Assembly: GCA_947504725.1 (NCBI GenBank)
Contig: CANNHN010000004.1
Span: 1 to 64,000 of the forward strand
Source: Bacteroidota bacterium
GTDB taxonomy: Bacteria > Bacteroidota > Bacteroidia > 2-12-FULL-35-15
DNA length: 64,000 bases
Reading direction: 5' to 3'
Shown: piece by piece, positions 1 through 44,251 of the stretch
Layout: every line of letters begins with the position of its first letter
How positions within the stretch are numbered: the first letter of the stretch is position 1
Translations under genes and position numbers: made by a program
The notes under the pieces: generated by a model
Database searches by the model: none
Told to the model about the DNA's origin: nothing
Seen by the model: only the letters and a program-made list of their open reading frames with translations

Positions 1-138
1 AGTTTCAAATTTGGTCTTTGGAAAATTGTAAATGAATAAGCCGAGTGACTCAGTTATTCTTTTTCCGTCCTTGGTAATTTCAAGATTGAGACTTGTTTTT
101 TCAGGACTCGTTAATCGTTTTCTGATTTTTACATTCAT
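1..138 (-). CDS. Tyrosine recombinase (phage-type integrase), N-terminal fragment
   Basis: An open frame reads from ATG at 138 off the left edge, giving 46 residues. It begins MNVKIRKRLTSPEKTSL and continues with an LxLEITKDGKR...ESLGLFIY pattern. This resembles the N-terminal arm-binding domain at the start of many Bacteroidota tyrosine recombinases (basic start, short beta strands, then ESLGL). The core-binding and catalytic R...HxxR...Y domains would lie outside the window and cannot be checked. The start is the only ATG before the intergenic repeats. The gene points away from the att-like site at 400-434, as an integrase lying just inside the end of its own element would. The family call rests on 46 residues only. 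Confidence 0.7.
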   Translation of the reverse strand, partial: MNVKIRKRLTSPEKTSLNLEITKDGKRITESLGLFIYNFPKTKFET

Positions 139-329: not shown

Positions 330-434
330 TAAAACGCGATTATTTGCCGATACAAAATCTATAAAAAATCCTATCCAATAGGTCGTCATTCATTATTCTG
401 GTTTTTCTGAAAGTAAAACTACGATACAACGTAG
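330..434 (+). repeat. Att-like element end, copy 1 (integrase side)
   Basis: The inner arm at 400-423 contains GTTTTTCTGAAAGTAAAAC followed by TACG. The core is CTACG (419-423), ATACAA (424-429), CGTAG (430-434), and the outer side continues CGTAGGT. The stretch 330-423 also matches 43707-43794 over about 75 bp with scattered differences. The 24-bp arm recurs inverted at 32249-32272. The integrase start at 138 lies on the inner side. Interpretation as a tyrosine-recombinase attachment site is inference. Confidence 0.7.
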
Positions 435-1446: not shown

Positions 1447-1471
1447 AATATATTAATGTTTCCGCTCTAAC

Positions 1472-1534
1472 ACTTCGACTACGCTCAGTGTGACGGAGTG
1501 ATTTCTCTGACGTCATGCTGAGCGTAGTCGAAGC
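1472..1534. repeat. Dispersed palindromic repeat (CTTCGACTACGCTCAG type)
   Basis: The left arm ACTTCGACTACGCTCAGTGT (1472 on) pairs with the right arm ending GAGCGTAGTCGAAGC (1534). This is the common Bacteroidota intergenic palindrome; related arms occur at 6524-6627, 45454-45479, 53236-53401 and 56871-56900. Confidence 0.8.
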
Positions 1535-1547
1535 ATAAGGGCTAAAT

Positions 1548-30912: not shown

Positions 30913-32214
30913 ATGAGACAAAAATATGATAGTTCTGTAGTATTTCTTTATGCTACTGGCAACGAAGCTTTACTTCCAAAAGAATTCAGGCAACAAATAC
31001 CTTACACTACTATTTCTTCCTGGCGAAAGGCGGATTATAGTTCTTACATTGGAAATGAATTTCGGTATTTTTTTGATGAGGCTTTTGAAGGCGCTGAATT
31101 GAAATTTAATTACAGAAAACAAAAACGCGCTTTGATTGCTTTTGCCAGATCTTGGCTTACGCTTTCTGTTTTTCTTAAACCGGTATTGAAAAAGGCTGGA
31201 AAGGATAAAACACTTCGAAAAAAACTTCTTCATGCAATTGAATGCATGAAGGAACATTTAGGAACGGAGAAGACTATTAAATTATTAGGAATCACAAAAT
31301 CCCAATATCGTCAGTGGATTTTGGAAGAACAGTTTTCATGTTTTGATTCTTCAACTGCACTTTGTGTGAAACGTTATCCGCACCAATTGGCAAATAAAGA
31401 AATTCAAAAAATAAAAAAAATGCTTCTTGATCCAGAGTTGGCTCATTGGCCTATTCTGTCCATCGCTGCGTTTGGCTTGCGCGAAGGAAAAATCATTGCG
31501 AGTTTGTACAGTTGGTATAAGTATGCTAAACTTTATGGTGTTACCCGACCGTTTTCCAGAAAGGATCAAAAGAAAATTGGTTTGATTGCAACTTATCCGA
31601 ACGAATATTTACATGCAGACCTCACTGAATTAATTGTTGGTGGAAAGAAAGCTTATATGTCGGTGGTGATGGACAACTATTCGAAAATGATTCTTGGATT
31701 TCATATCGGAAGAAGAAAAACTGCGCATCTCTCATTAGTAGCTTTACGTAAAGCGATTGAAGTGATACTTAAGCATCCAAATCACTCTCATATTTTCTTA
31801 GTAACTGATGGCGGAAAAGAAAACCATAATAAGCTGATGGAAGAATTTATTAGGAAATCCAAGACACATAAACTCACTAAGATAAGAGCGCTGAAGGAAA
31901 TTCAATTTTCGAATTCACCAGTTGAAGCAGTTCATAAGATTATGAAAGGGCGTTATCTCCCAAAACAGATATTCGCTACTATGAAAAGTTTAAAAGAATA
32001 CCTCGATTGGGCCGTGCACGATTATAATGAGCTTCGACCTCACTATCGGCATAGTCCGAGAACTCCTTATGAAGCCTATTTCAATATTCCTTTAAAATTT
32101 GATCTTAAGAAGAGGAGAAGGAATGCGGTGGTAAAAAGAGTTAAAAAAAATTCCTGTTCGAAATGCATTCAGTGTAAATTGGGACCGAGATTAAAAGACT
32201 GTTGTTCAGCATAA
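30913..32214 (+). CDS. DDE integrase-core transposase
   Basis: 433 aa from the ATG at 30913 (MRQKYDSSVVFLY); the open frame continues upstream only through the MITE-like repeat. After a helical DNA-binding half (helix-turn-helix-like TEKTIKLLGITKSQYRQWI near residue 120) comes an rve/RNase H-type core. D1 is in YLHADLTEL near residue 235, D2 in FLVTDGGKENHNKL near 300, and E in SNSPVEAVHKIMK near 338. The tail is Cys-rich (SCSKCIQCKL ... LKDCC), possibly a small metal-binding knuckle. I found no matching terminal repeats immediately flanking the gene. It sits 23 bp outside the att-like site of the island. Confidence 0.8.
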   Translation: MRQKYDSSVVFLYATGNEALLPKEFRQQIPYTTISSWRKADYSSYIGNEFRYFFDEAFEGAELKFNYRKQKRALIAFARSWLTLSVFLKPVLKKAGKDKTLRKKLLHAIECMKEHLGTEKTIKLLGITKSQYRQWILEEQFSCFDSSTALCVKRYPHQLANKEIQKIKKMLLDPELAHWPILSIAAFGLREGKIIASLYSWYKYAKLYGVTRPFSRKDQKKIGLIATYPNEYLHADLTELIVGGKKAYMSVVMDNYSKMILGFHIGRRKTAHLSLVALRKAIEVILKHPNHSHIFLVTDGGKENHNKLMEEFIRKSKTHKLTKIRALKEIQFSNSPVEAVHKIMKGRYLPKQIFATMKSLKEYLDWAVHDYNELRPHYRHSPRTPYEAYFNIPLKFDLKKRRRNAVVKRVKKNSCSKCIQCKLGPRLKDCCSA

Positions 32215-32237: not shown

Positions 32238-32273
32238 CTACGAATGAACGTAGTTTTACTTTCAGAAAAACCC
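32238..32273 (-). repeat. Att-like element end, copy 3 (left end of cargo island)
   Basis: Core CTACG (32238-32242), AATGAA (32243-32248), CGTAG (32249-32253). The inner 24-bp arm 32249-32272 is the exact reverse complement of 43771-43794. The outer side is ACCTACG. No direct target duplication flanks the two island ends. Confidence 0.75.
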
Positions 32274-32299
32274 GAAATGCAGTGGGAAAGGGTGAAAAT

Positions 32300-32324
32300 T
32301 CAGGTTCGATCCCCCTACGGGCTA
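32300..32324 (+). other. tRNA T-arm-like fragment
   Basis: GGTTCGATCCCCCTACGGGC resembles the TTCGATC loop and 3' acceptor side of a tRNA, but the 5' side of the T stem does not pair beyond two bases and no tRNA body lies upstream. It could be a scar of an earlier integration at a tRNA gene. The last codons and stop of the tyrosinase gene fall within it. It may be chance. Confidence 0.3.
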
Positions 32325-32974
32325 CAGTGCTGATTATAATAAGTGGGGCTTTGCCATACAGCCCATTGTCTATCAATATTTGTATGATGAGCCCAAAATA
32401 TCGGATCAAATGCCGCACGCGGCACAGAAGACATTTCACCACGATTTGCACCGCCTGCACCAACCCAAACATGAATGCTTCCGTGAGGTCCTTCTATTGC
32501 ACTATTAAATGATTCATAAGTATTGTTCTTGTATGCCAGTTTAGCAGAATCACTTATACTTTTTAATTGTTCAACTCTCCCAGGAAATCTTTTTGTTTTT
32601 CTGCTTCGATCTTCAATCGGTCCATTATACAAGGAATTTTCCTCAGTTACTCCTGATTGTAAATTGTAAAACTGATCGTTATATCCATCTGGTATACCAG
32701 TCTGCAGGCTTTCCATTGAAGTCCAATCCCAATACGGTAAATTTACAGAGCTGTCAATTTTTTTTAGTTCTGATTCGAATTTGAAAATATAGTATCTGTG
32801 CCATGGTAAAAATAAGAAACTTCCATGTGGACAAAGAGCTTTAGGGATCCCATGGTATCCGGCCATATCAATATAACTGAACTCTCCAATTTTTTCCTGG
32901 AAAGTCTTCATTGCTATTCTCAATTTATTGAGTTCGTCTGAAGTGTAGTTTCTGATATCTTTTCTTATGTTCAT
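32315..32974 (-). CDS. Tyrosinase-family copper protein
   Basis: 219 aa, no signal peptide. The two type-3 copper sites are complete: CuA ligands His41, His50 and His59 (AGYHGIP, CPHGS, LPWHRYY), and CuB ligands His164, His168 and His196 (GPHGSIHVWVG, FDPIFWAHHTNIDRQW). A Cys at 48, two residues before His50, could form a thioether. Tyrosinases hydroxylate phenols and oxidise catechols to quinones. The chain stops soon after CuB (WAVWQSPTYYNQHCSP), shorter than most family members, and the stop codon lies in the tRNA-like fragment, so the C-terminus may be truncated. It is last in the island's gene cluster. With no export signal it may act inside the cell or be carried by a partner. Confidence 0.88.
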   Translation of the reverse strand: MNIRKDIRNYTSDELNKLRIAMKTFQEKIGEFSYIDMAGYHGIPKALCPHGSFLFLPWHRYYIFKFESELKKIDSSVNLPYWDWTSMESLQTGIPDGYNDQFYNLQSGVTEENSLYNGPIEDRSRKTKRFPGRVEQLKSISDSAKLAYKNNTYESFNSAIEGPHGSIHVWVGAGGANRGEMSSVPRAAFDPIFWAHHTNIDRQWAVWQSPTYYNQHCSP

Positions 32975-33093: not shown

Positions 33094-33813
33094 TTATTTA
33101 TGTTTATCTTTTGAGAAAGAAAAGTCGGGAGATGCCCAATTTAGATCTACATTTCCTGCGATGCCATTAACTGAACCTTTTTCTGACCATTGCCACATAA
33201 GCCATTCAGTCCATCCTACTGGCAATGTTGGTTTTTGAGTTTGATAATGAGCCAACCACAATGGGTAATTCCCAAGCGTGTGGGTTGAAGGTAGATTGTC
33301 ATTTAAAAAAGACGGACCTCCATAAATAATTAGAGGCTCAGTACTATATGTTTCAAACTCTGCTATAAAAGCAAGGATCCATTGTAAATAGTCAGCTTTT
33401 TTTAATGCATCCTTATTTTTTTCCAAATCTAAAACATAAGCTTTTGCCAATGTTGGCTTTGGTAGTTTTCTAAGAGCCGCAATAAAATATTTAGCTTCAG
33501 TAACTGCATCTCCTTCTTTGTTTTCCGGAAATGCAAAGTGATAATAACCAAAAGGTAAGCCGACTCTTTTAGCCTCTTTTGCATTCGTTTCTGCTTTGAG
33601 ATCTGATATTGTCGCACCTTCTGTGGTTTTTATGTAAACAAAACGTATTGGTTCATTCGGAATAACAACTTTACTCACTTTGTCCCAATCTATTGCCCCT
33701 TGATGATGGGAAACATCAATTCCTTTCTTAAAATTGTTTAAATCTATAAATTCAAGCTCTGTTTTAAGTAGTTTGTTTTTTGGTGCTTTGTTTTTTACTG
33801 CTGTTTTTTTCAT
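33094..33813 (-). CDS. Glycoside hydrolase family 25 lysozyme-like protein
   Basis: 239 aa. The GH25 start GIDVSHHQGAIDWDKV places Asp33, and the catalytic pair DxE is seen at Asp129 and Glu131 (AYVLDLEKN). FVYIKTTEGAT and LPFGYYHFAFP are further family strands, and LMWQWSEKG near residue 210 with VDLNWA closes the barrel. GH25 enzymes cleave the N-acetylmuramic acid to N-acetylglucosamine bond of peptidoglycan. There is no signal peptide; the N-terminus is basic (MKKTAVKNKAPKNKLLK). It lies 12 bp after the 1463-aa gene and so is co-transcribed with it. It could be an effector or release enzyme delivered by another route. Confidence 0.88.
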   Translation of the reverse strand: MKKTAVKNKAPKNKLLKTELEFIDLNNFKKGIDVSHHQGAIDWDKVSKVVIPNEPIRFVYIKTTEGATISDLKAETNAKEAKRVGLPFGYYHFAFPENKEGDAVTEAKYFIAALRKLPKPTLAKAYVLDLEKNKDALKKADYLQWILAFIAEFETYSTEPLIIYGGPSFLNDNLPSTHTLGNYPLWLAHYQTQKPTLPVGWTEWLMWQWSEKGSVNGIAGNVDLNWASPDFSFSKDKHK

Positions 33814-33825
33814 ATTATTTAGTTT

Positions 33826-36800
33826 TTAAATTGTGAAAACATTTGAAAGAACAATTCGACTGTTTTTGTTTTCGATTATATTATCATAATTGGTATCATT
33901 ATCATTACCCCAATCCTCTGTTTCAATAATTACAACCTGGTATTCAGTATTTGAATAGTTGATATAGTGTAGTTTTTCATTTTCTGCTCCGGGAAGATTC
34001 GATAGTTTTAAAAAGGCCGACCTATCATTCTCTTTTTCTTTATCTGCAACATCCCATTTTATTGTACCTGATTTTCTATGACGGACAACTGCATAAAATT
34101 TTGAGAGATTTTCTGAAGGATCACCTTTCAAAGTTGTAATGTCGAATTGAAGCTTGGGCTGGATAAACCATTTCCCATAATCTATTGTTATGGTTCTGCT
34201 ACCCATGATATAAGCATACCGTGATTTAAATGTCTCGGAAATTCTGCAATCTTTGGAAATATCGTATTCTCCTTCAATATTATAATTAGATGAGTTCTCC
34301 TGATAATGTACAAGGAAAAATTTCAGGAACGGACTATGCAATTCTTTTCCTGATGCATCATTAATGTCGAGTTGAGCATCCACATACCAAAGGTTAAGTG
34401 ATTTATCAAACTTAGGAAGGTAGGTCATTATACCAAGTTCTTTAACATATTTTGGACTAAAATCTTCAAGATCCCCCAATTTATTACCTGCCATATCTGT
34501 TAAGTCAAACGGATCATTAATGTCGAAGTTAGATCTTGCCAATAATACTCCTTCATTTCTATTCAAGCCGTCATAAGGTTTTACCGTATCTGACAAAACA
34601 TCTCTTCCAACCATTGATACTAGGCCATTCCCAACAAAATAATCATTGTACTTGCTTTCTACTTCATTAACTACAAATCCAATTCTTTCTCCTTGTCCGG
34701 AAGTTAGTCTTCCTCGTTCAAAGAAAAATCTCAACCTGTTCATTGTGATTTTCCGTACATCTGAATTACCTTCTTTCCAATCTTCAATTACAGAAACAAG
34801 TGTAATATTTTTATCTGCAATTATTGGAAGACCAGGTTTTTTGCTGTTTAATATTTTAACATGGAATGGTTCATATGACAACCTGTTAAAGGTTTCTGCT
34901 GATGATTCATAAGACGTTTGGAGTTTTATTTTGTTTTCCTTATTGTCTTCAATTACACCCCATGTTTTAGGATAATAAGCAGTAAACTTTGATTTATTTT
35001 TTATCCAGAATATTTTTTCAACAAATTTTGTTTCTTTGATATCATAATTCAGATTCACGGTTACGGAATAATTTTTTGAATCATTATTATCATCTGCAAT
35101 TTTATGAATGCTGCTTTCCCAAGTGCCGAGTTGCTTTTGAACATCAACGCTAGTTTCAAATATTGCGGGCATTTCGGTATGATCATTCAGGTTTGATTCA
35201 AAATGATCGAGATTAACTTTATTCACAGGGTTGAGAGGTGTCCAGCTATCGTTGACGGTGGTGACATGTTTAGGGTCATCCTTGTACTCTTCCCACTTTG
35301 CATAGATCTCGACATTTCCTGTAGGCATTGTTTCATCAATGAAACGAACAATTCCTGCTTCGTCTTTGTAAATATTTATTTGTTCCAAATGGACCGCGCC
35401 TTCATAAGAGACAATTGTCTTGTCTTTTTGCTTAATACATTTAAGTGTATTCATGAATTTAGGGCGAACCAACGGACGTTGAATGGCATGGATCATACTG
35501 AATTCAAGAGGTGGTGTTAACAGATCATTATTACCATATCTGGTAAAATCATTGTAGTTGCCGTATGTTTCAAATTCAGCCTCGTATTTTTCGTTCAGGA
35601 TCGTTCTTGCAGTAACAAAAATTTCCTGTCCTTTTTCCAGATGGATTACAATTTCCTCTCCGACAGTATTAAAAGTCAGTAATTCTCTGTTAGTATGATC
35701 ATAATCCTTCAAAATAATTTTCCAGGCATTTATGTTAGGATATTTCCCAGTGAAATAAAATTCAAGCTGCTCATACTTTTCATAGTTTTCAGCTTTGATA
35801 GTGCGTTCCTTGTTTTTATAAAATTCAAATCTGAATCCTTTACTTAAAGGATCCGGTAAATAATTTATATTACAATTGCCGGAATAAGCATCTCTCATCC
35901 TTGTAGAACCCTTAATGGATTCTTCCAGATCATACTTCCAATATGTTGGTTCTTCACCAATTTTTTTAGGCTTTTCTTTTGGAACCCAGTTTCCGTTCAT
36001 ATCCGTGAACATAACGACTTCATCTTCGATTGCAGGGAAGTGATATTTCATGTACCAATTATATGATTCAATAAGATCCATCCCTGTTTTTCCGTCTTTC
36101 TTAAAAAGTTTATTATGCCAGAAAGCTTGCTGAAAAGAAATTGCAGGTGGCAAAATGTGTCTTACAGAAGTTTGAGTGGTTTTATATATTTTGTCATTGT
36201 CAGCTCTACTGCAATTGCGAATAACAAGATGAGTCAAGGATTCACCTTCTCTTAAGCATTCAGGCTCTCCTTTTTCATTCACTAGTTTTTCCTGAAGATA
36301 AAGCTCAATGGGTTTAACCGGTTCATTTCTTTTAAAGGTGAAATCATCAACAACAATAAAATTTGATTGTATTTTCGTTAAAAACTTCGGGTCAATAGCA
36401 AAACCATTTTTGTATTCAGGAACAGCCAATATTTGAATGTTTTTTCCAAACAACAATTTTTTATTTTTAATATCAGAAGAAGAATATTCGAATAAAAGTG
36501 GAACAATTTTTTTGTTTGTGTTCAACTTAACAATTGCTTTTTTCTTTTCCGTTTCAGTTAGTGTATTTGTATATTCTACGCCTAACGTTTCATAATCCTC
36601 CATAAAAAATTTGCTCATTGATTCAAGAACAAGTTTAGTCGATGGAGTGGTAGAACCTTCATCAACTATAGCCTCAAAATTTTCCTCTTTTTCCTGGTTT
36701 GAAAAGGCACTTGGCATTCCAATGTTTTCACCTGACCAGGTTAATAACGCCTGGTCTAGGATTACTTTTTTCTTGAGTACTTCTTCTTTGGCACCAGTAG

Positions 36801-38217
36801 GTTTTGTTATTTCCTCTTTTAATATTGCATGACTTCCTGCATCGGTATTGATAGCAAATTCTTGTTTTGTAAATTCCTTTGGCAGCAACGCATTTAATTC
36901 TGCACCTAGGCTGCCTTTTAAAGTAACAGCTCTGGTTCCAAGGGGCAGAAACTGACTTTTTTCGCTTTTTGCAAAAAACCGGTATCCTCTGGTAATTCTG
37001 TAGAGATAGTTGCTTTTCAAATTTCCTGCTTCAACTTGCTCTTCAGCTTTCAGTACTTCCGACAGATTACTATTGTACATGCTCATTCCCGTGGTTAAAG
37101 CGGCTGTATCAACAGATAGTAATTGTTTTATAATGGCATTTCGTTCAGATTCTTTTTTTGAAGGATCTTTTAGTTGTTCAATATAATTTTTGTATTTTTC
37201 TTCAACTGTTTTTAATCCCACCAACTTGCCGCCAATATCATGATTCTTCGCCTGGTATTGTTTTACCACATTTTGGATTGGGGCTGCTTCCTCTACGACC
37301 AAAACATTAAGTTCGCGATAAATTTTCATTGGAGTCTCAAGGTGTTCCCAATTTAAATTTGCTATTTCAGGAATAGATTCAGGAAAATCAAAAACGATTC
37401 CAAACGCATCAATTCCCTCAGGTAAAGAATCCTCTAAAACTTTCTTTGGTATTTCAAAATCAATCGTTTTCCCAGATAATCTTTGCAATAATATATTTGA
37501 ATCCAATACAGACCAGAAGTCCAAAATAGTATCGATGGTATCCAAAATATCCTTTAGTTGCAATTCGTCAGCAAGATGCAATGCTTTATATTCTTGCGTA
37601 TTTGTTTCATCCGAAAAAAGTGTAATTCCATTCAATTTGTCGTTAAACGCATGGATGTCGGTTTTTAAGTCAGCACTGAAAACATTATCTATTTTTGCTG
37701 CACCAACAATTTTTAACTGTTTACTCTTGATTGTGGCGAATGCTTCAATCGCTTTTTTTCGTGGCTGATCAGTATCAGGTAAGCTGTTTTTACCAAACAA
37801 AGATGTTGTTGAATTTGCACTAAGGTCAAAACTTGGGGCAAAATTTTTAATTTTATCGCTGCGTTTATCGGTTCTTTTAGGGAGACTTTTATTTAACTCA
37901 TTCCATACAGTAGGGACTTTATCTGATAAGCTCTGAAAACACAATTGTGAAACACTTATTGCCTTTTGCCCTTGCACTATTTTAACCTTTAAATTTTTTA
38001 TGAGTTTTTCATGAACAGATTTGTTTTCTATTCCGAAAGTCTTAATAAATTCCTGAAGCGCCACTAAGGAAGGAACTAGCAATTTATCGTCTCCTTCTGA
38101 AGGGAAATTAGGGTTAATATCTATGCATAAAGAAAATCTATACCATAAATTGGTTGATTCATCAGTTCTAGTTCCGAAAGGCAAAATGCTTGTGCGGATG
38201 TGTTTAAAATCTTCCAT
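33826..38217 (-). CDS. Giant protein of unknown family (1463 aa)
   Basis: 1463 aa from ATG 38217 (MEDFKHIRTSILPFGTRTDE), one base after the stop of the 1774-aa gene, so translation is probably coupled. No signal peptide or membrane helix is evident. It begins with a mixed helical region (about residues 1-420, with a predicted coiled stretch around EEKYKNYIEQLKDPSKKESERNAI). The remaining 1000 residues are largely beta-strand-like, rich in Asn, Lys, Glu and aromatic residues, with no repeats I can align by eye. No catalytic motif or known family was recognised. It could be a structural, shell or adhesin-like protein acting with the 1774-aa product. That is a guess from size, gene order and tight coupling. 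Confidence 0.7.
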   Translation of the reverse strand: MEDFKHIRTSILPFGTRTDESTNLWYRFSLCIDINPNFPSEGDDKLLVPSLVALQEFIKTFGIENKSVHEKLIKNLKVKIVQGQKAISVSQLCFQSLSDKVPTVWNELNKSLPKRTDKRSDKIKNFAPSFDLSANSTTSLFGKNSLPDTDQPRKKAIEAFATIKSKQLKIVGAAKIDNVFSADLKTDIHAFNDKLNGITLFSDETNTQEYKALHLADELQLKDILDTIDTILDFWSVLDSNILLQRLSGKTIDFEIPKKVLEDSLPEGIDAFGIVFDFPESIPEIANLNWEHLETPMKIYRELNVLVVEEAAPIQNVVKQYQAKNHDIGGKLVGLKTVEEKYKNYIEQLKDPSKKESERNAIIKQLLSVDTAALTTGMSMYNSNLSEVLKAEEQVEAGNLKSNYLYRITRGYRFFAKSEKSQFLPLGTRAVTLKGSLGAELNALLPKEFTKQEFAINTDAGSHAILKEEITKPTGAKEEVLKKKVILDQALLTWSGENIGMPSAFSNQEKEENFEAIVDEGSTTPSTKLVLESMSKFFMEDYETLGVEYTNTLTETEKKKAIVKLNTNKKIVPLLFEYSSSDIKNKKLLFGKNIQILAVPEYKNGFAIDPKFLTKIQSNFIVVDDFTFKRNEPVKPIELYLQEKLVNEKGEPECLREGESLTHLVIRNCSRADNDKIYKTTQTSVRHILPPAISFQQAFWHNKLFKKDGKTGMDLIESYNWYMKYHFPAIEDEVVMFTDMNGNWVPKEKPKKIGEEPTYWKYDLEESIKGSTRMRDAYSGNCNINYLPDPLSKGFRFEFYKNKERTIKAENYEKYEQLEFYFTGKYPNINAWKIILKDYDHTNRELLTFNTVGEEIVIHLEKGQEIFVTARTILNEKYEAEFETYGNYNDFTRYGNNDLLTPPLEFSMIHAIQRPLVRPKFMNTLKCIKQKDKTIVSYEGAVHLEQINIYKDEAGIVRFIDETMPTGNVEIYAKWEEYKDDPKHVTTVNDSWTPLNPVNKVNLDHFESNLNDHTEMPAIFETSVDVQKQLGTWESSIHKIADDNNDSKNYSVTVNLNYDIKETKFVEKIFWIKNKSKFTAYYPKTWGVIEDNKENKIKLQTSYESSAETFNRLSYEPFHVKILNSKKPGLPIIADKNITLVSVIEDWKEGNSDVRKITMNRLRFFFERGRLTSGQGERIGFVVNEVESKYNDYFVGNGLVSMVGRDVLSDTVKPYDGLNRNEGVLLARSNFDINDPFDLTDMAGNKLGDLEDFSPKYVKELGIMTYLPKFDKSLNLWYVDAQLDINDASGKELHSPFLKFFLVHYQENSSNYNIEGEYDISKDCRISETFKSRYAYIMGSRTITIDYGKWFIQPKLQFDITTLKGDPSENLSKFYAVVRHRKSGTIKWDVADKEKENDRSAFLKLSNLPGAENEKLHYINYSNTEYQVVIIETEDWGNDNDTNYDNIIENKNSRIVLSNVFTI

Positions 38218-38218
38218 A

Positions 38219-41200
38219 TTAATCAATATAAGAGTTAATAAAAATTTCCCATTGTAATCGTGTCAGTGGTTTAACTTTTCGTTCAACGGGATTTGTTATT
38301 GTTTTCAAAACAGCACTATATTTTGTTTTGTCATGAACATCCTCGGCCGATAACAGCTTGAGTGTGTTGTATTTTTGAACTGCAAGCAACATACTTCCCG
38401 ACTGGCTATTTCCAGGAGTTGCGCCTGCAAGTTTTTTATAATATGTTGCCGAAAAAGATCTCTTAAAGAATCTGCCCAAGCGTATCTCATAAGAAACGGT
38501 ACATCTGCCTTCCACATATGCGCCCTGACTTCTTACTCCCATATAGAACCTTGCAGTAATCATAATAAACCAGAGCTTCACTCTTCCTTCGCAAAGGAAA
38601 TAGCCTTCTATAACAACTCCCGTTCTATCCTTTTTATAGTACAGTCCTACAACAAGTTTTACTTCGCCTCTTAGTGGGCCTAGATTCAACCCGAAATACC
38701 CTCCGAATTCAATACTTACCTCTATTGTTGTGATTCCCTCTTTTGGATTACCAATAACAATAAAATAAAATAAACCGGTGTAGATACCAACAGATAATTT
38801 CGTTCTGTTTTCAGGTGTGCCAATTCCGACACCTAACTCCATTGGTTTTTTATCGAAATATAAGGTATATACTATTTTAAACAGTATATCTTTAAAACCG
38901 AAGGAAGGTGCCCCTGCATAAGCTATTGGAAGCAAATATTGGATTTCAACATTTTGAGGAGAAATTCTTACAGAGAAATTATCACCGAGCAGTTTTTTAA
39001 ATAATGCTTCAAGTGCCTGCACAAAAGAAAATGCACCAGCAAACTGGACATCCCTGATCTTAACTTCAAATTTTGATTTTTGATTGGTGCCTGCAACAAA
39101 ACTTACCTCATTGAAATTAATTATGATTGCTTTCAAAAGGCTGATTCCGAAATTATTAAGTCTGTTTTCTGCGCTAGACTCAACCTTGCTTATGACGGCA
39201 GGAAATTTATTTGGTTGAAAGAAAATGGTGTTCTTTACTTTAACAGAAAGTGAGGTCTTTGGATTTTCAGATGCTAAAAAACTAACAATACCAAAATCTG
39301 CATTTTTAAAGGAAGAGGTTTGCCAGTTATAATTTATTTCTTTTTTGGATAAAGAGGAAAGAATATTATACAACTCTTTTCCTTTTATTACTGCATCTAT
39401 AAGCGCTTTATTATCAGGGTCATTTAATAATTCATTTTCTTTATCTTTAACTTTCTGAATTACCAATTCTACAATGTTTTTGCCTGCAGCAATCTGATTT
39501 TTTGTGAACTCTTCAAAAATCTTTAATGCCTTGATTTGTTTTTGTATCTCAGCCTTTAGTTCATCCTCCTTTATTCTTATCTGTTCTTTAAAATCTTTAA
39601 ACCCATTTTGTGGGATTTTCATGATTTCTTCAATTCTATCGACACCTATGCTTTTGGTATAGGCGGCAATAGAAGTTTTACTTTCTAAAACAAGAGTGTC
39701 AAAATTGTCTTTTAAAATATCATATTTAAGTTTTTTTAAAGTAGGAGTGATTTGTATCTCTTCTAAATAAAATGCTTCAAGCTTTTTTCTTTCGTTCTGA
39801 ACTGATGCTATAAAGTCTTTATGTTCTACACGATTAATAATAGAATCAATAGCATTGCCTAAAAGAAATTCATTCGGTTTTAATTTAGACTTGAACGTAT
39901 TAATGTCTTTCATAGCCTTATCATACATGTTTATATAATAAGGCAGGTTAATCGTTTCAAGGATTTCAGTTAGTTTAAAAACAGATTTTTGTACGGATAC
40001 AATAGCAGGTTCATATTCTTTTATCAATGCAAAATCTGTCGGGTATTTTTTTAATTCAGTTAATAACTTAAATACGTCTGATTTGGCGGATTGAATTTTT
40101 TCTATCTCCTGGTCATATTTTTCCTTAGAATCAAGTGCAGTTTTTTTAATAGCAAGATATTTATTGTAATTAACTGAGGTTTGTTGCTGAATGTACAAAT
40201 TGTATGCTGTTACCTCCTTACCTATATCCTCCGAATACTTTTTATATAGCGTGTAGAAGCTCGTAACTTTATTGCTTATTGATAAATGAATCTGAGAATA
40301 TTCTCTGATGATCTTATCTTTTGAAGGTGCTGCAAGGTTGATGAGAATCTGATCATCGTTCAAAAAATTCTTTACAAAATTATTGATAAGGGTCTTTGTT
40401 TCAGGACCAAGATTGGGTGTTTTTGCTAGTGTATCGAATGAGTCTTTGGCATCCTTTAAAGCTTGATAATAAGGATAAATAGCTTCTGTACGGCTGATTA
40501 ATTCTGCAGCGAAGTAATTAACAATCTCATTCATCTGCGTGGTGCCAAATGTTACAATCTCATTTTGGACTTGGAGGAATCTTATTTTATGTTTAGAAAC
40601 AGCACTTTCCACCAGTTTCTCAATTTCAGAAGCAAGGTAGCCTATGTTAAATTTGTCTTTATATTCTTTAAGAGTATTTTGATAAGTAGCTATTGTATTA
40701 CTTATAGCTTCAATATCATCCAGATAATTTTTTATAGTATCATTAATAGTACGCAGATCTCCTTCTATTTCAAGGTAGATGGAATTATTAAGAAACTCGT
40801 CTCTGATAGCTTCTATTTTTGAACTGATATTCTTTATCTCATTCAAAGGTGCTTCATAATCAGGGAAAACTTCCTGCAGAATATCTAATAAGCTTATTCC
40901 GTTAAAGATCTCAGGCGCTTGTCTTAAAAGATCTGAAGGATTGAATTCTTTAATTTCGTCAACAATATTTACAGCATTCTCATATTTTTTATTAATATCT
41001 TTTCCAACAGCAATACTTTGTTTGACTAGCCCAATTGATTGAATATCAAAATCAGGGTTAACCATTCCTCCAATTGTTTCTCCTGCACCTCCGAATGCTT
41101 CTTTGATTTTCTTATAACCACTATCTGCTTTTTCCTGCCATTTGCCATTTATATTCTCCAGTACAGTTTCTCCTTTCTTAATAAAACTGTCTGTATGATT

Positions 41201-43543
41201 AAAAATAAGTCTTGCTTTATTATATATGTTTTCTACTGGCTGTCCTTTTTCATTGATCCGGATAAGTGTTTTTCCGCTTTTGTCTCTTACTTTACCTGCG
41301 TAGCCGTAATTAATAAAATCATCATTATATTCAACAATCGAGGCGATAGGTTCCGGAGTATAACTTTGAATATTTTCTACATACAGTTGAGCTTTTTTCG
41401 CTTGAGGATAAAGCGGAAATGCTCTTTCATTAAAAATGGAACTTTGGCCAACAGCAATCTCAGCGTCAGTAGGAATCAGCACCGTTCCAGTTTCGGTCTT
41501 TACAGAACGTGTAGGTTCCAAACAAATACTGAAATAGTATTCCAGGAAATCGGTTTTGGCTATGTTGGTTTTATTTGGTACAGAACCTTTTATTTCAGGG
41601 TCGGTTGGAATAAAGTCAGGAGTAAAGGCTATGCTCTGATCAATGAATCTGATAGCTCTTCTATCGAATTTCTGGTTTATAAAACCAAGTTTACTGTCGC
41701 TGTATAGATTCTCATAGATTTTTTGTTCCCCGGTTTGACATTCAATGATTTTTTTTCTGATAAAAAGAAAAGTGCTTGAAAATTTGATCTCCTTATCATT
41801 CCAATCAAAACCAATAAAATCTAGATAACAGTCATTGTCTGCATCCTTTATCTGATTTTCTTTTACCGGCCAAAAAAAAGTTGCACAATCGCAACCTGGT
41901 GCTGCATAGCTACGGGCCTCCGGATCTGTCGAGTTTATGCGGGGAGTTATAAAAGTTACCGATTTGACTTTTTTAAACGGCCATCGTTTATAATTTGTGT
42001 GCCAGTTTTTTTTCTGATCGGTATAAGGGTGCTCTGGAAGATAATCCTTTATAGCCCATATAACCGAATCTCTGTAAGTATTGTCCGTTTCTTTATCAAG
42101 AAGATCAATGCTATGAATAATTGCATCCGGCTTTGGAGGTTTTCTGTTATCATTATAAGTATAATAAACCGGAGGGTATTTTCTCGCGTGAATATAATTT
42201 TGAGGCTCTTTAGGATTGAGGTCTCCGGGTATAAATAAGTTATTGTCGAAATACGTGAGTTCTTTCTGTATGATCTCAATGTATTCATAGAATTCCATAT
42301 AACTGATCCCGTTCCTGATTTTCCTTTCTCCAATATAAACGTGTAAAGCTTTTTGACCTGTTACGGAAATAACACCGATCCTTGCTACTTTTATATATTC
42401 ATCACGGCCCATTGTTATGTGATGTTCATATTCTGCAAGATCTGTCCCGTCAGGAGGACTGAAATTTTTATAATGAAGTTTTGTTATGGCTCCAAGTCCT
42501 GTAAATGTTAATCCTTTTGTTTCTATGTTCCATTCATTATCTGAATTAAGGTTTCTACCCAGGCTGGTTAAAAAAACAAGTTCGTTCTTATCAAGTAGAG
42601 TAGGAAGATATGTTATCTCTTCAACAGGACATTCGCCATCATCTCTCAGACCCTCCTTGACGCCCCGAGGGAGAAAACCGACAGCCCTCAAAGAAGGACT
42701 TTTGATGCCATCCGCGGTTTCGAAAAACATTTGTGCCGACCAGATTTCTTCAACTGTTCGCGTCACTTTTCTATTTGCATTATTATATAAAAACCTTTTT
42801 TTGGGAATCCTATACGTTTCCATATAGGTTCTTGTGCCTTCTTTGTTATAAGGGGATAATAATAATCCTTCAGGTATTTCAAGAAGGGTCATCGGATAAT
42901 TACCGCCCTTAAATAATTTTTCGCAGATCGATTGGTAGAGCTTAATGATATAGCCTTTGGTTGGTTTTTTGTCGACATCCACAATCCTTGCCTCATCTCC
43001 TTTTTCAAAGTCAGACCACTTCTGTTTTTTAAATTTTATATAATCTGCTTCATTTGGAATTATAAGCTTATAGTATAATGGATTATTCCAGGCTAATAAA
43101 TTTTCTATTTTGCTTAGATCAATGTATGTGATCTTTTTACCTTTAGGGGTGGGTTTAACAGCGGGAGGGAAAAGTTCGAAAGCTAAAAAGGAAAAGCCTG
43201 AGATTTCGGATGTTGTTCTTTTATTTGTATTTAAATATTCAGACTCAAACTTTGCATTTCTCAATAGCAATTCCGAAATATGCTGTTGTGGAAGCTTAAC
43301 TATCATATAGCTTTTTGAATTGATATCAGACTTTACGATACAGTCAACTTTAATTTCCGCATTAATAAAATAGAAATGTAAATTGGTCAGATTGTTATCA
43401 AAATAATGAAAATCAGTTGAGATCATTGCTTCGTCAAGAGCATCCGGCAGAATATTCAAAAGCTTTGATAATGCATCAATAGTTGGAAGGGATGCAAAAG
43501 CAGTAAAAAGCATTTTTTGAGCAAATGAACGTCTTGATTCCAT
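38219..43543 (-). CDS. Giant coiled-coil protein of unknown family (1774 aa), Tat-like N-terminus
   Basis: 1774 aa, first gene of the island's cluster. The N-terminus MESRRSFAQKMLFTAFASLP fits a twin-arginine signal (S-R-R-x-F-x-x-K then a hydrophobic stretch), but there is no obvious cleavage site. Residues about 40-820 are beta-rich and include a Cys cluster (PGCDCATFFWP, NDCYLDFIGFDW). Residues about 830-1400 are a very long helical, coiled-coil region, Lys/Glu-rich and nearly free of proline and cysteine. The last 370 residues return to amphipathic beta strands with Gly and aromatic residues (FGGYFGLNLGPLRGEVKLVVGLYYKK, SFSATYYKKLAG), as in a membrane-inserting or barrel-like module. The head-stalk-tail layout suggests a secreted or structural machine part. 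No known family recognised. Confidence 0.72.
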   Translation of the reverse strand: MESRRSFAQKMLFTAFASLPTIDALSKLLNILPDALDEAMISTDFHYFDNNLTNLHFYFINAEIKVDCIVKSDINSKSYMIVKLPQQHISELLLRNAKFESEYLNTNKRTTSEISGFSFLAFELFPPAVKPTPKGKKITYIDLSKIENLLAWNNPLYYKLIIPNEADYIKFKKQKWSDFEKGDEARIVDVDKKPTKGYIIKLYQSICEKLFKGGNYPMTLLEIPEGLLLSPYNKEGTRTYMETYRIPKKRFLYNNANRKVTRTVEEIWSAQMFFETADGIKSPSLRAVGFLPRGVKEGLRDDGECPVEEITYLPTLLDKNELVFLTSLGRNLNSDNEWNIETKGLTFTGLGAITKLHYKNFSPPDGTDLAEYEHHITMGRDEYIKVARIGVISVTGQKALHVYIGERKIRNGISYMEFYEYIEIIQKELTYFDNNLFIPGDLNPKEPQNYIHARKYPPVYYTYNDNRKPPKPDAIIHSIDLLDKETDNTYRDSVIWAIKDYLPEHPYTDQKKNWHTNYKRWPFKKVKSVTFITPRINSTDPEARSYAAPGCDCATFFWPVKENQIKDADNDCYLDFIGFDWNDKEIKFSSTFLFIRKKIIECQTGEQKIYENLYSDSKLGFINQKFDRRAIRFIDQSIAFTPDFIPTDPEIKGSVPNKTNIAKTDFLEYYFSICLEPTRSVKTETGTVLIPTDAEIAVGQSSIFNERAFPLYPQAKKAQLYVENIQSYTPEPIASIVEYNDDFINYGYAGKVRDKSGKTLIRINEKGQPVENIYNKARLIFNHTDSFIKKGETVLENINGKWQEKADSGYKKIKEAFGGAGETIGGMVNPDFDIQSIGLVKQSIAVGKDINKKYENAVNIVDEIKEFNPSDLLRQAPEIFNGISLLDILQEVFPDYEAPLNEIKNISSKIEAIRDEFLNNSIYLEIEGDLRTINDTIKNYLDDIEAISNTIATYQNTLKEYKDKFNIGYLASEIEKLVESAVSKHKIRFLQVQNEIVTFGTTQMNEIVNYFAAELISRTEAIYPYYQALKDAKDSFDTLAKTPNLGPETKTLINNFVKNFLNDDQILINLAAPSKDKIIREYSQIHLSISNKVTSFYTLYKKYSEDIGKEVTAYNLYIQQQTSVNYNKYLAIKKTALDSKEKYDQEIEKIQSAKSDVFKLLTELKKYPTDFALIKEYEPAIVSVQKSVFKLTEILETINLPYYINMYDKAMKDINTFKSKLKPNEFLLGNAIDSIINRVEHKDFIASVQNERKKLEAFYLEEIQITPTLKKLKYDILKDNFDTLVLESKTSIAAYTKSIGVDRIEEIMKIPQNGFKDFKEQIRIKEDELKAEIQKQIKALKIFEEFTKNQIAAGKNIVELVIQKVKDKENELLNDPDNKALIDAVIKGKELYNILSSLSKKEINYNWQTSSFKNADFGIVSFLASENPKTSLSVKVKNTIFFQPNKFPAVISKVESSAENRLNNFGISLLKAIIINFNEVSFVAGTNQKSKFEVKIRDVQFAGAFSFVQALEALFKKLLGDNFSVRISPQNVEIQYLLPIAYAGAPSFGFKDILFKIVYTLYFDKKPMELGVGIGTPENRTKLSVGIYTGLFYFIVIGNPKEGITTIEVSIEFGGYFGLNLGPLRGEVKLVVGLYYKKDRTGVVIEGYFLCEGRVKLWFIMITARFYMGVRSQGAYVEGRCTVSYEIRLGRFFKRSFSATYYKKLAGATPGNSQSGSMLLAVQKYNTLKLLSAEDVHDKTKYSAVLKTITNPVERKVKPLTRLQWEIFINSYID

Positions 43544-43706: not shown

Positions 43707-43805
43707 CTGGTTACTTCCCGATACAAAATCTACAAAATATCCTATACAATAAGTCATCATTCAATATTCCGGTTTTTCTGAAAGTAAAACTACGTTGTAT
43801 CGTAG
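43707..43805 (+). repeat. Att-like element end, copy 2 (right end of cargo island)
   Basis: Inner arm 43771-43794 (GTTTTTCTGAAAGTAAAAC then TACG), core CTACG-TTGTAT-CGTAG at 43790-43805, outer CGTAGGT. The stretch from 43707 matches 330-423 with a 10-base gap and scattered substitutions. The whole 300-base gap 43544-43843 otherwise holds only the AT-rich upstream region of the 1774-aa gene; no promoter of the standard type was evident. Confidence 0.75.
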
Positions 43806-43843
43806 GTGTACCAAATGTAGTGAAATTTAACAGGGGAGGAAAG

Positions 43844-44251
43844 TTATTTCAAAAACTCCAGCACTTTTTCCGGTGGCCTGCCTATAATGGCTTTCTTCCC
43901 TTTAACAACAATAGGGCGCTCAATAAGAATAGGGTTTTGAGCCATAGCTTTTATCCATTGCGCTTCAGTTAAATTCTTTCCTTCATACTTTTCCAAAAAT
44001 ATTGGCTCTTTCTTTCGCACTAAATCTACAGCTTTCAATCCAAGCATTTTTAAAAGCTCTTTTATTTCAGCTTGAGTAAGTGGTGTTTTTAAATATTCAA
44101 CAATCTCGGTTTTAACTTTCTTTTTTTCTAAGATAGTACAAACGTCTCTGCTTTTGGAGCAACGGGTGTTGTGGTATAACCTCACCCCGGCCCTCTCCAA
44201 AGGAGAGAGAGTTGTCTCCGTTTTTGTTTTAGTAGTTTTTGTCTTTATCAT
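43844..44251 (-). CDS. ArsC/Spx-type thioredoxin-fold protein (arsenate reductase-like)
   Basis: 135 aa. After an atypical leader, RLYHNTRCSKSRDVCTIL gives the family's redox motif with Cys31 (CxxS). The family patterns EYLKTPLT, LLKMLGL, and NPILIERPIVVKGKKAIIGRPPEKVLEFL follow. ArsC enzymes reduce arsenate to arsenite using glutaredoxin, but several Bacteroidota members have no arsenic context and may act as Spx-like or unknown reductases; no arsR or arsB is nearby. Residues 1-23 (MIKTKTTKTKTETTLSPLERAGV) are not family sequence: LSPLERAGVR is the translation of the palindromic repeat at 44181-44209. Normal homologues start about at RLYHN. Confidence 0.85.
   Translation of the reverse strand: MIKTKTTKTKTETTLSPLERAGVRLYHNTRCSKSRDVCTILEKKKVKTEIVEYLKTPLTQAEIKELLKMLGLKAVDLVRKKEPIFLEKYEGKNLTEAQWIKAMAQNPILIERPIVVKGKKAIIGRPPEKVLEFLK

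What the first reader, a model, noticed from the sequence alone, without database searches (positions are those of the whole stretch)
330..434. A third copy of the same end lies beside a tyrosine recombinase gene at the left edge
The site at 400-434 has the identical 24-bp arm and core architecture, and the 90 bp inside it resemble the right end of the cargo island. An integrase gene begins about 285 bp inside that end; in the island, the 1774-aa gene begins about 250 bp inside the matching end, where the integrase would be expected. This suggests an autonomous element and a cargo-only relative sharing att ends in the same chromosome.
Basis: partly seen in the sequence, partly recalled or inferred. 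Interest (0 to 1): 0.75.

Follow-up and report, generated by a model that had tools for sequence, protein, structure and literature searches.

The report
Bacteroidia gene cassettes with tRNA-tagged ends
The repeated DNA end next to an integrase fragment is one end of a large insertion whose other end lies on another contig, and it belongs to a Bacteroidia-wide family of cargo-carrying elements whose ends share a palindromic site and often contain a broken-off piece of a tRNA gene.

Summary
In detail: the 24-bp arm and 5-6-5 palindromic core at 400-434 match both island ends exactly, and the 97 bp inside match the island's right end at 87%. The window starts at a contig end, so only 46 aa of the integrase exist (PF17293, above cut-off). 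A fourth copy on contig C16 lies beside lysC; in at least 16 relatives lysC and serA are neighbours. So C16:31070 and C4:434 are the two ends of one insertion of at least 6.5 kb, and its far end does carry the arm. "Autonomous plus cargo-only" is only partly supported: the catalytic domain is missing, no other genus genome has a close integrase, and the ends occur in 10 genera, mostly on cargo-only cassettes. New facts: one end type carries tRNA or tmRNA 3' pieces running into cargo; core half-sites covary; no target duplication is seen; a DDE transposase gene repeatedly ends 18-50 bp outside a site, including at the island; the same locus carries hipBA in a relative. Best reading: cargo cassettes moved by site-specific recombination at the palindrome, enzyme unproven.

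The parts
396..434 (-). R-type end of the lysC-serA element: arm 400-423, core CTACG-ATACAA-CGTAG 419-434; the element lies to the left (lower coordinates)
340..395 (-). Conserved inner part of the R end, shared with the island's right end; two direct copies CCGATACAA (347-355) and CCTATCCAA (370-378), candidate arm-type sites (inference)
   Evidence: (97 nt, 87% identity)
1..138 (-). N-terminal 46 residues of a tyrosine recombinase-type gene, cut by the contig end
   Evidence: PF17293 26.4 bits; single copy in the genome
454..1386 (-). serA-like 2-hydroxyacid dehydrogenase, right flank of the insertion; neighbour of lysC in relatives
30913..32214 (+). IS3-like DDE transposase gene; its stop codon is 24 bp outside the island's left core
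   Evidence: rve and rve_3; homologues in the same position at other sites
32238..32277 (+). L-type end of the island: core CTACG-AATGAA-CGTAG and arm
32303..32324 (+). tRNA 3' piece (T-loop, T-stem 3' strand, acceptor 3' strand) inside the L end
   Evidence: judged by eye and by alignment with other L ends, it does not pass the strict T-arm test
32315..32974 (-). Tyrosinase-type gene whose frame ends inside the tRNA piece, probably truncated
   Evidence: PF00264; comparison with PDB chains
33094..33813 (-). Cargo: GH25 lysozyme-type gene
   Evidence: PF01183
33826..38226 (-). Cargo: 1466-aa protein without Pfam, NCBIfam or PADLOC match
38219..43543 (-). Cargo: 1774-aa protein without Pfam or PADLOC match; full-length relatives at 52% in two Pedobacter genomes
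43711..43807 (-). R-type end of the island: core CTACG-TTGTAT-CGTAG 43790-43805, arm, and inner copies CCGATACAA (43718-43726) and CCTATACAA (43741-43749)
43844..44251 (-). arsC-like gene, right flank of the island; the same gene flanks the hipBA element in G421

Best explanation
The site at 400-434 is the right (R) end of one insertion of at least 6.5 kb between the convergent genes lysC (contig C16) and serA (contig C4); its left (L) end is at C16:31070. This insertion and the 11.5-kb island are two members of a Bacteroidia-wide family of cargo elements. They are bounded by inverted sites made of a 5-bp half-site, a 6-bp spacer, a 5-bp half-site and a conserved inner arm (NTTTNNTTTCAGAAAAASCGGAA). 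Shown: paired inverted ends, insertion relative to relatives, different cargo at one locus, covarying half-sites, no target duplication, tRNA 3' pieces in many ends. Inferred: they move by site-specific recombination at the core, most likely by a tyrosine recombinase acting in trans on the cargo-only members, and the integrase of the lysC-serA element is a candidate for that enzyme in this genome. The tRNA pieces are inferred to mark cargo picked up next to tRNA genes or tRNA-borne islands.
For: Two ends flank lysC and serA, which are adjacent in at least 16 relatives. The end pattern is found in 10 of 36 genus genomes and 15 of 395 class genomes (10 genera) with no reversed-control hit. Short cassettes with paired inverted ends in G397, G399, G543, G677 and G726. 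Half-sites covary: 24 perfect palindromes against 13.1 in shuffles, 21 both-side changes against 10.9. No target duplication in ten elements. Strict T-arms in 11 of 46 inner ends against 13 of 3387 background windows. Same locus, different cargo, in G000 and G421. Tyrosine recombinase gene parts start about 130-285 bp inside three ends.
Against: The integrase is a 46-aa fragment; no close homologue in other genomes that carry the ends; integrase parts at the other two ends are truncated and unrelated to it by BLAST. Spacers at the two ends of an element are no more alike than in shuffled pairs (34 of 60 against 33.9), unlike a simple exchange between identical overlaps. No matching palindrome is seen in the uninterrupted lysC-serA region of relatives. 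A DDE transposase gene, not an integrase, is the recurrent neighbour. In most loci only one end was found.
Confidence: 0.5

Rival explanations
1. The ends belong to the IS3-like DDE transposase: the transposase gene plus the adjacent site form a platform, and cargo between two sites is moved or captured by that enzyme, in the manner of a Pack-MULE or MITE.
For: At six of 46 sites the gene ends 18-50 bp outside the core, always 3' end towards the site, at unrelated loci. In 977 kb of fetched loci of these bacteria, every near-complete copy lies beside a site or 465 bp from one, though those loci were mostly chosen by their sites.
Against: No target duplication; no second transposon end upstream of the gene; 40 of 46 sites lack the gene within that distance; the spacer between half-sites is not a usual feature of DDE ends.
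Confidence: 0.25
2. The integrase fragment is incidental cargo: the lysC-serA element is a cargo-only cassette that happens to carry part of an unrelated integrative element.
For: Other ends carry truncated tyrosine recombinase parts as apparent cargo (G398 131 aa, G395 232 aa); no family-wide link of an integrase to the ends.
Against: The gene sits about 285 bp inside an R end, a plausible place for an element's own integrase; its completeness is unknown because the contig ends there.
Confidence: 0.4
3. The ends are used by the host XerC/XerD, as in dif modules.
For: XerC/D-like recombinases of 302 and 297 aa are present; site layout half-site, 6-bp spacer, half-site; cargo-only units with inverted sites; IS1202-family elements sit beside pdif sites in Acinetobacter (PMC10132070).
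Against: None of 46 cores has the CATAA/TTATG inner half-sites that I recall for dif; the half-sites are CTWCG/CGWAG.
Confidence: 0.1
4. The inverted sites mark invertible segments (phase variation), not mobile cassettes.
For: Sites are inverted and nearly palindromic, segments are often 0.4-1 kb, and an inward TAnnTTTG promoter-like motif lies 6-8 nt outside 7 of 46 cores.
Against: The lysC-serA region is uninterrupted in relatives, one locus carries different cargo in sister species, and the two ends differ in type in G000.
Confidence: 0.07

Closest known systems
Acinetobacter dif (pdif) modules moved by XerCD, with IS1202-family insertions beside the sites (PMC10132070)
   Same: Cargo-only units bounded by inverted two-half sites with a 6-bp spacer; a DDE transposase found at a fixed distance and orientation beside sites
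   Different: Half-sites are not dif-like; long conserved inner arm; tRNA pieces; chromosomal, in Bacteroidia
tRNA-targeting integrative elements and genomic islands (Islander type, PMC4383910)
   Same: tRNA and tmRNA 3' pieces next to cargo and recombinase gene parts
   Different: tRNA piece lies 50-70 nt inside a separate palindromic end; the two ends carry different tRNAs; no intact target tRNA at the junction
Integron platform and gene cassettes
   Same: Cargo-only units that differ at a fixed locus beside a recombinase or transposase gene
   Different: Two inverted sites per cassette instead of one attC; the neighbouring gene is a DDE transposase; no integron integrase seen
Tn916/CTnDOT-type elements (tyrosine recombinase with coupling sequences; from memory)
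   Same: Spacer differs between the two ends; arm-domain integrase near one end
   Different: No conjugation or excision genes seen; cargo-only members; palindromic 5-6-5 core
Pack-MULEs (gene-fragment capture between inverted repeats in plants; from memory)
   Same: Gene fragments between inverted ends; DDE transposase in the neighbourhood
   Different: No target duplication; tRNA pieces at the junctions; bacterial

Membership tests
XerCD dif module | dif-like half-sites (CATAA / TTATG next to a 6-bp spacer; recalled consensus) | tested here: not met
   0 of 46 cores; they read CTWCG-N6-CGWAG
XerCD dif module | Cargo bounded by two inverted sites with a 6-bp spacer | tested here: met
Autonomous tyrosine-recombinase element | Complete integrase with catalytic domain inside the element | tested here: inconclusive
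   Only 46 aa before the contig end; catalytic half not found elsewhere in the genome
Autonomous tyrosine-recombinase element | Both ends carry the same att-type site | tested here: met
   C16:31070 and C4:434 joined by lysC-serA synteny
DDE insertion sequence or its MITE | Short target-site duplication | tested here: not met
   ten elements, no excess over shuffled pairs beyond the 95% level
DDE insertion sequence or its MITE | Transposase gene enclosed by the inverted ends | tested here: not met
   gene lies outside the paired ends, no second end upstream of it
Integron cassette | Integron integrase with adjacent attI, and attC sites | not tested
   No integron integrase was noticed among the genes read; attC models were not run
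tRNA-integrated genomic island | Intact target tRNA at one end and its displaced 3' fragment at the other | tested here: not met
   No intact tRNA beside the ends scanned; the two ends of one cassette carry pieces of different tRNAs

The most novel reading that the evidence does not exclude
A previously undescribed gene-capture system of Bacteroidia: cassettes bounded by inverted palindromic sites in which the join to the cargo is made at the 3' end of a tRNA or tmRNA sequence, with a DDE transposase gene plus site as the fixed platform where cargo is swapped.
Probability: 0.25. Interest if true: 0.85.

Novelty: new variant of a known kind. Interest (0 to 1): 0.6.

Why it matters
The ends give a sequence handle (a 40-bp signature with no hits in reversed controls) for finding cargo elements in Bacteroidia that have no recognisable recombinase, so integrase-based mobile-element searches would be expected to miss them. 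They carry toxin-antitoxin, Rhs, lysozyme and unknown giant genes, and sister species differ in cargo at the same locus. If the tRNA-piece junctions reflect a capture mechanism, they would give a testable route by which bacteria acquire gene fragments.

Tried and rejected
Full tRNA genes in the ends: ARAGORN and Rfam found none there, because only 3' parts are present. An RNA-primed (mature tRNA) origin was considered because a few pieces end in CCA, and not adopted: most pieces lack CCA and the tRNA genes of this group often have a C after the discriminator, so gene-derived DNA explains them. A consistent antisense orientation of cargo was checked by eye and not found. ssDNA folding of whole ends was not clearly better than shuffles in 4 of 5. 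A Leptospira plasmid copy of the transposase has no such site downstream. The transposase has no hit in viral contigs. Literature searches for tRNA-fragment-ended cassettes found no match, in an open-access library only.

Full report
Observation. In the whole genome the 22-bp arm occurs only four times: the three in the window and one on contig C16 at 31081-31102, with no hit for the reversed pattern. The exact palindrome CTACG-N6-CGTAG also occurs only at these four places. The window begins at the first base of contig C4, so the integrase is a 46-residue N-terminal fragment; it passes the Pfam cut-off for Arm-DNA-bind_5.

The far end. The fourth copy lies 53 bp from the stop codon of lysC and its arm points away from that gene. 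At C4 the arm points away from serA. Among 30 loci of the genus read around serA (this genome included), lysC is detected directly beside serA, tail to tail, in 16 relatives. The two copies are therefore the two ends of one insertion between lysC and serA, at least 6.1 kb on C16 plus 0.4 kb on C4 plus an unknown gap. The C16 side carries a SiaC-like gene (below the family cut-off), a response regulator and a hybrid histidine kinase.

Two end types. The R type (C4:434, island right end, and G421:C26 and G421:C3) shares inner sequence. In the two G000 ends it includes two direct copies of CCKATMCAA 23 bp apart, which could be arm-type sites (inference). The L type (C16 and island left end) carries a T-loop, T-stem 3' strand and acceptor 3' strand of a tRNA 50-70 nt inside the core.

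A family, not a pair. The pattern CTNCG-N6-CGNAG-NTTTNNNTTCNGAAAAANCNGAA is found in 10 of 36 genomes of the genus, which is the only genus of its order held here, and in 15 of 395 genomes of the class, 10 of 196 genera, with no reversed-control hit in either search. Small cassettes with paired inverted ends were read in G397 (568 bp), G399 (403 bp), G543 (511 and 1044 bp), G677 (1002 and 966 bp) and G726 (2793 bp). Their cargo includes apparent gene fragments: the C-terminal part of a SpoIIE domain, a Por secretion tail, and a stretch that looks like an endonuclease/exonuclease/phosphatase C-terminus (by eye, no Pfam hit). Larger or unpaired ends lead into hipBA, AbiEii, Rhs, a caspase-like protein and others.

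tRNA pieces. By a strict T-arm test, 11 of 46 ends have one within 150 nt inside the core, against 13 of 3387 background windows. The sites are related, so the p-value (3e-17) is only indicative. By eye more ends have a degenerate piece; the two G000 L ends are of that kind. BLAST against tRNA genes from the same group shows a 28/28 match to tRNA-Ser in G397, 23/23 to tRNA-Ser in G677, a tRNA-Met piece in G399, a reversed tRNA-Asp piece in G677 and a tmRNA 3' end in G543. The two ends of one cassette carry different tRNAs. Cargo starts at or within a few bases of the tRNA 3' end. In the island the tyrosinase reading frame ends inside the piece, and the protein stops just after the second copper-site region, where bacterial tyrosinases of 281-303 aa continue, so it is probably truncated. 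In G395 a truncated tyrosine recombinase catalytic part follows the tRNA piece, and in G398 a truncated Arm-DNA-bind_5 gene. This fits DNA taken from tRNA-borne integrative elements (inference).

The core. Half-sites covary (CTACG/CGTAG, CTTCG/CGAAG, CTACC/GGTAG, CTGCG/CGCAG): 24 perfect palindromes against a shuffled mean of 13.1, and 21 both-side changes against 10.9, with partners slid by one to three columns pairing far less. The sequences are related, so these tests overstate independence. This fits a protein that binds both half-sites, or a hairpin; folding of whole ends gives no clear further support. No target duplication was found, and the spacers of the two ends are not matched.

Same place, different cargo. 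Between fumarase and arsC, G000 has transposase - L end - tyrosinase, GH25, two giant genes - R end. G421 has a transposase remnant, hipBA and an R end. G422 and G411 have neither transposase nor ends. G677:C16 and G726:C56 share the gene beside their right end and the arm, but differ in tRNA piece and cargo.

The transposase. An IS3-like DDE protein (rve; below the NCBIfam IS3 cut-off) ends 18-50 bp outside a site at six of 46 sites, always with its 3' end towards the site, at unrelated loci. It has no detectable second transposon end. IS1202-family insertions that target dif sites in Acinetobacter (PMC10132070) are the nearest analogue; the alternative is that this protein is the enzyme.

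Conclusion. The pairing of an autonomous and a cargo-only element is possible but unproven, because the integrase is a fragment and integrases are not the recurrent partner of these ends. What is well supported is a Bacteroidia-wide family of cargo elements with shared palindromic ends and, in many of them, tRNA-tagged inner ends. The recombination enzyme and the origin of the tRNA pieces are open.

Noticed in passing
window 33826-43543: Two giant genes (1466 and 1774 aa) next to a lysozyme gene, without any Pfam match; the 1774-aa protein has full-length relatives (52%) in two Pedobacter genomes, each followed by a second giant gene of similar size, and in one by an amidase-type gene, with no such ends around.
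   Followed up: partly
outer flanks of 46 sites (e.g. window 43805, L095, L161, L164, L172): A TAnnTTTG motif, like the Bacteroidota -7 promoter element, lies 6-8 nt outside the core pointing inward at 7 of 46 sites; about 0.4 expected.
   Followed up: partly
G543:C1:113070-113170 and 114213-114400, G543:C5:29300-29418 (outer flanks in L163, L164): A structured repeat of about 85 nt (AGGGCCGAACG...GCCAGCTTGCGGGAAAGCAC) lies just outside three of four ends, in tandem at one; its own borders repeat part of the core.
   Followed up: partly
L092 594-2734 (G418:C135): Two sites facing away from each other flank genes that look like an AbiE-type toxin-antitoxin pair, so two elements may lie back to back.
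   Followed up: no
L011 12426-12866 and L160 6296-6706: ORFs next to the tRNA pieces look like C-terminal ends of large serine recombinases (from memory only; no Pfam or NCBIfam match).
   Followed up: partly
L083 1269-8716 (G395:C77): An L-type end opens into an array of ORFs with Rhs-like core starts and different C-termini.
   Followed up: no
window 1464-1542: An inverted repeat with CTACGCTCAG-type sequence between genes, a dispersed intergenic palindrome.
   Followed up: no
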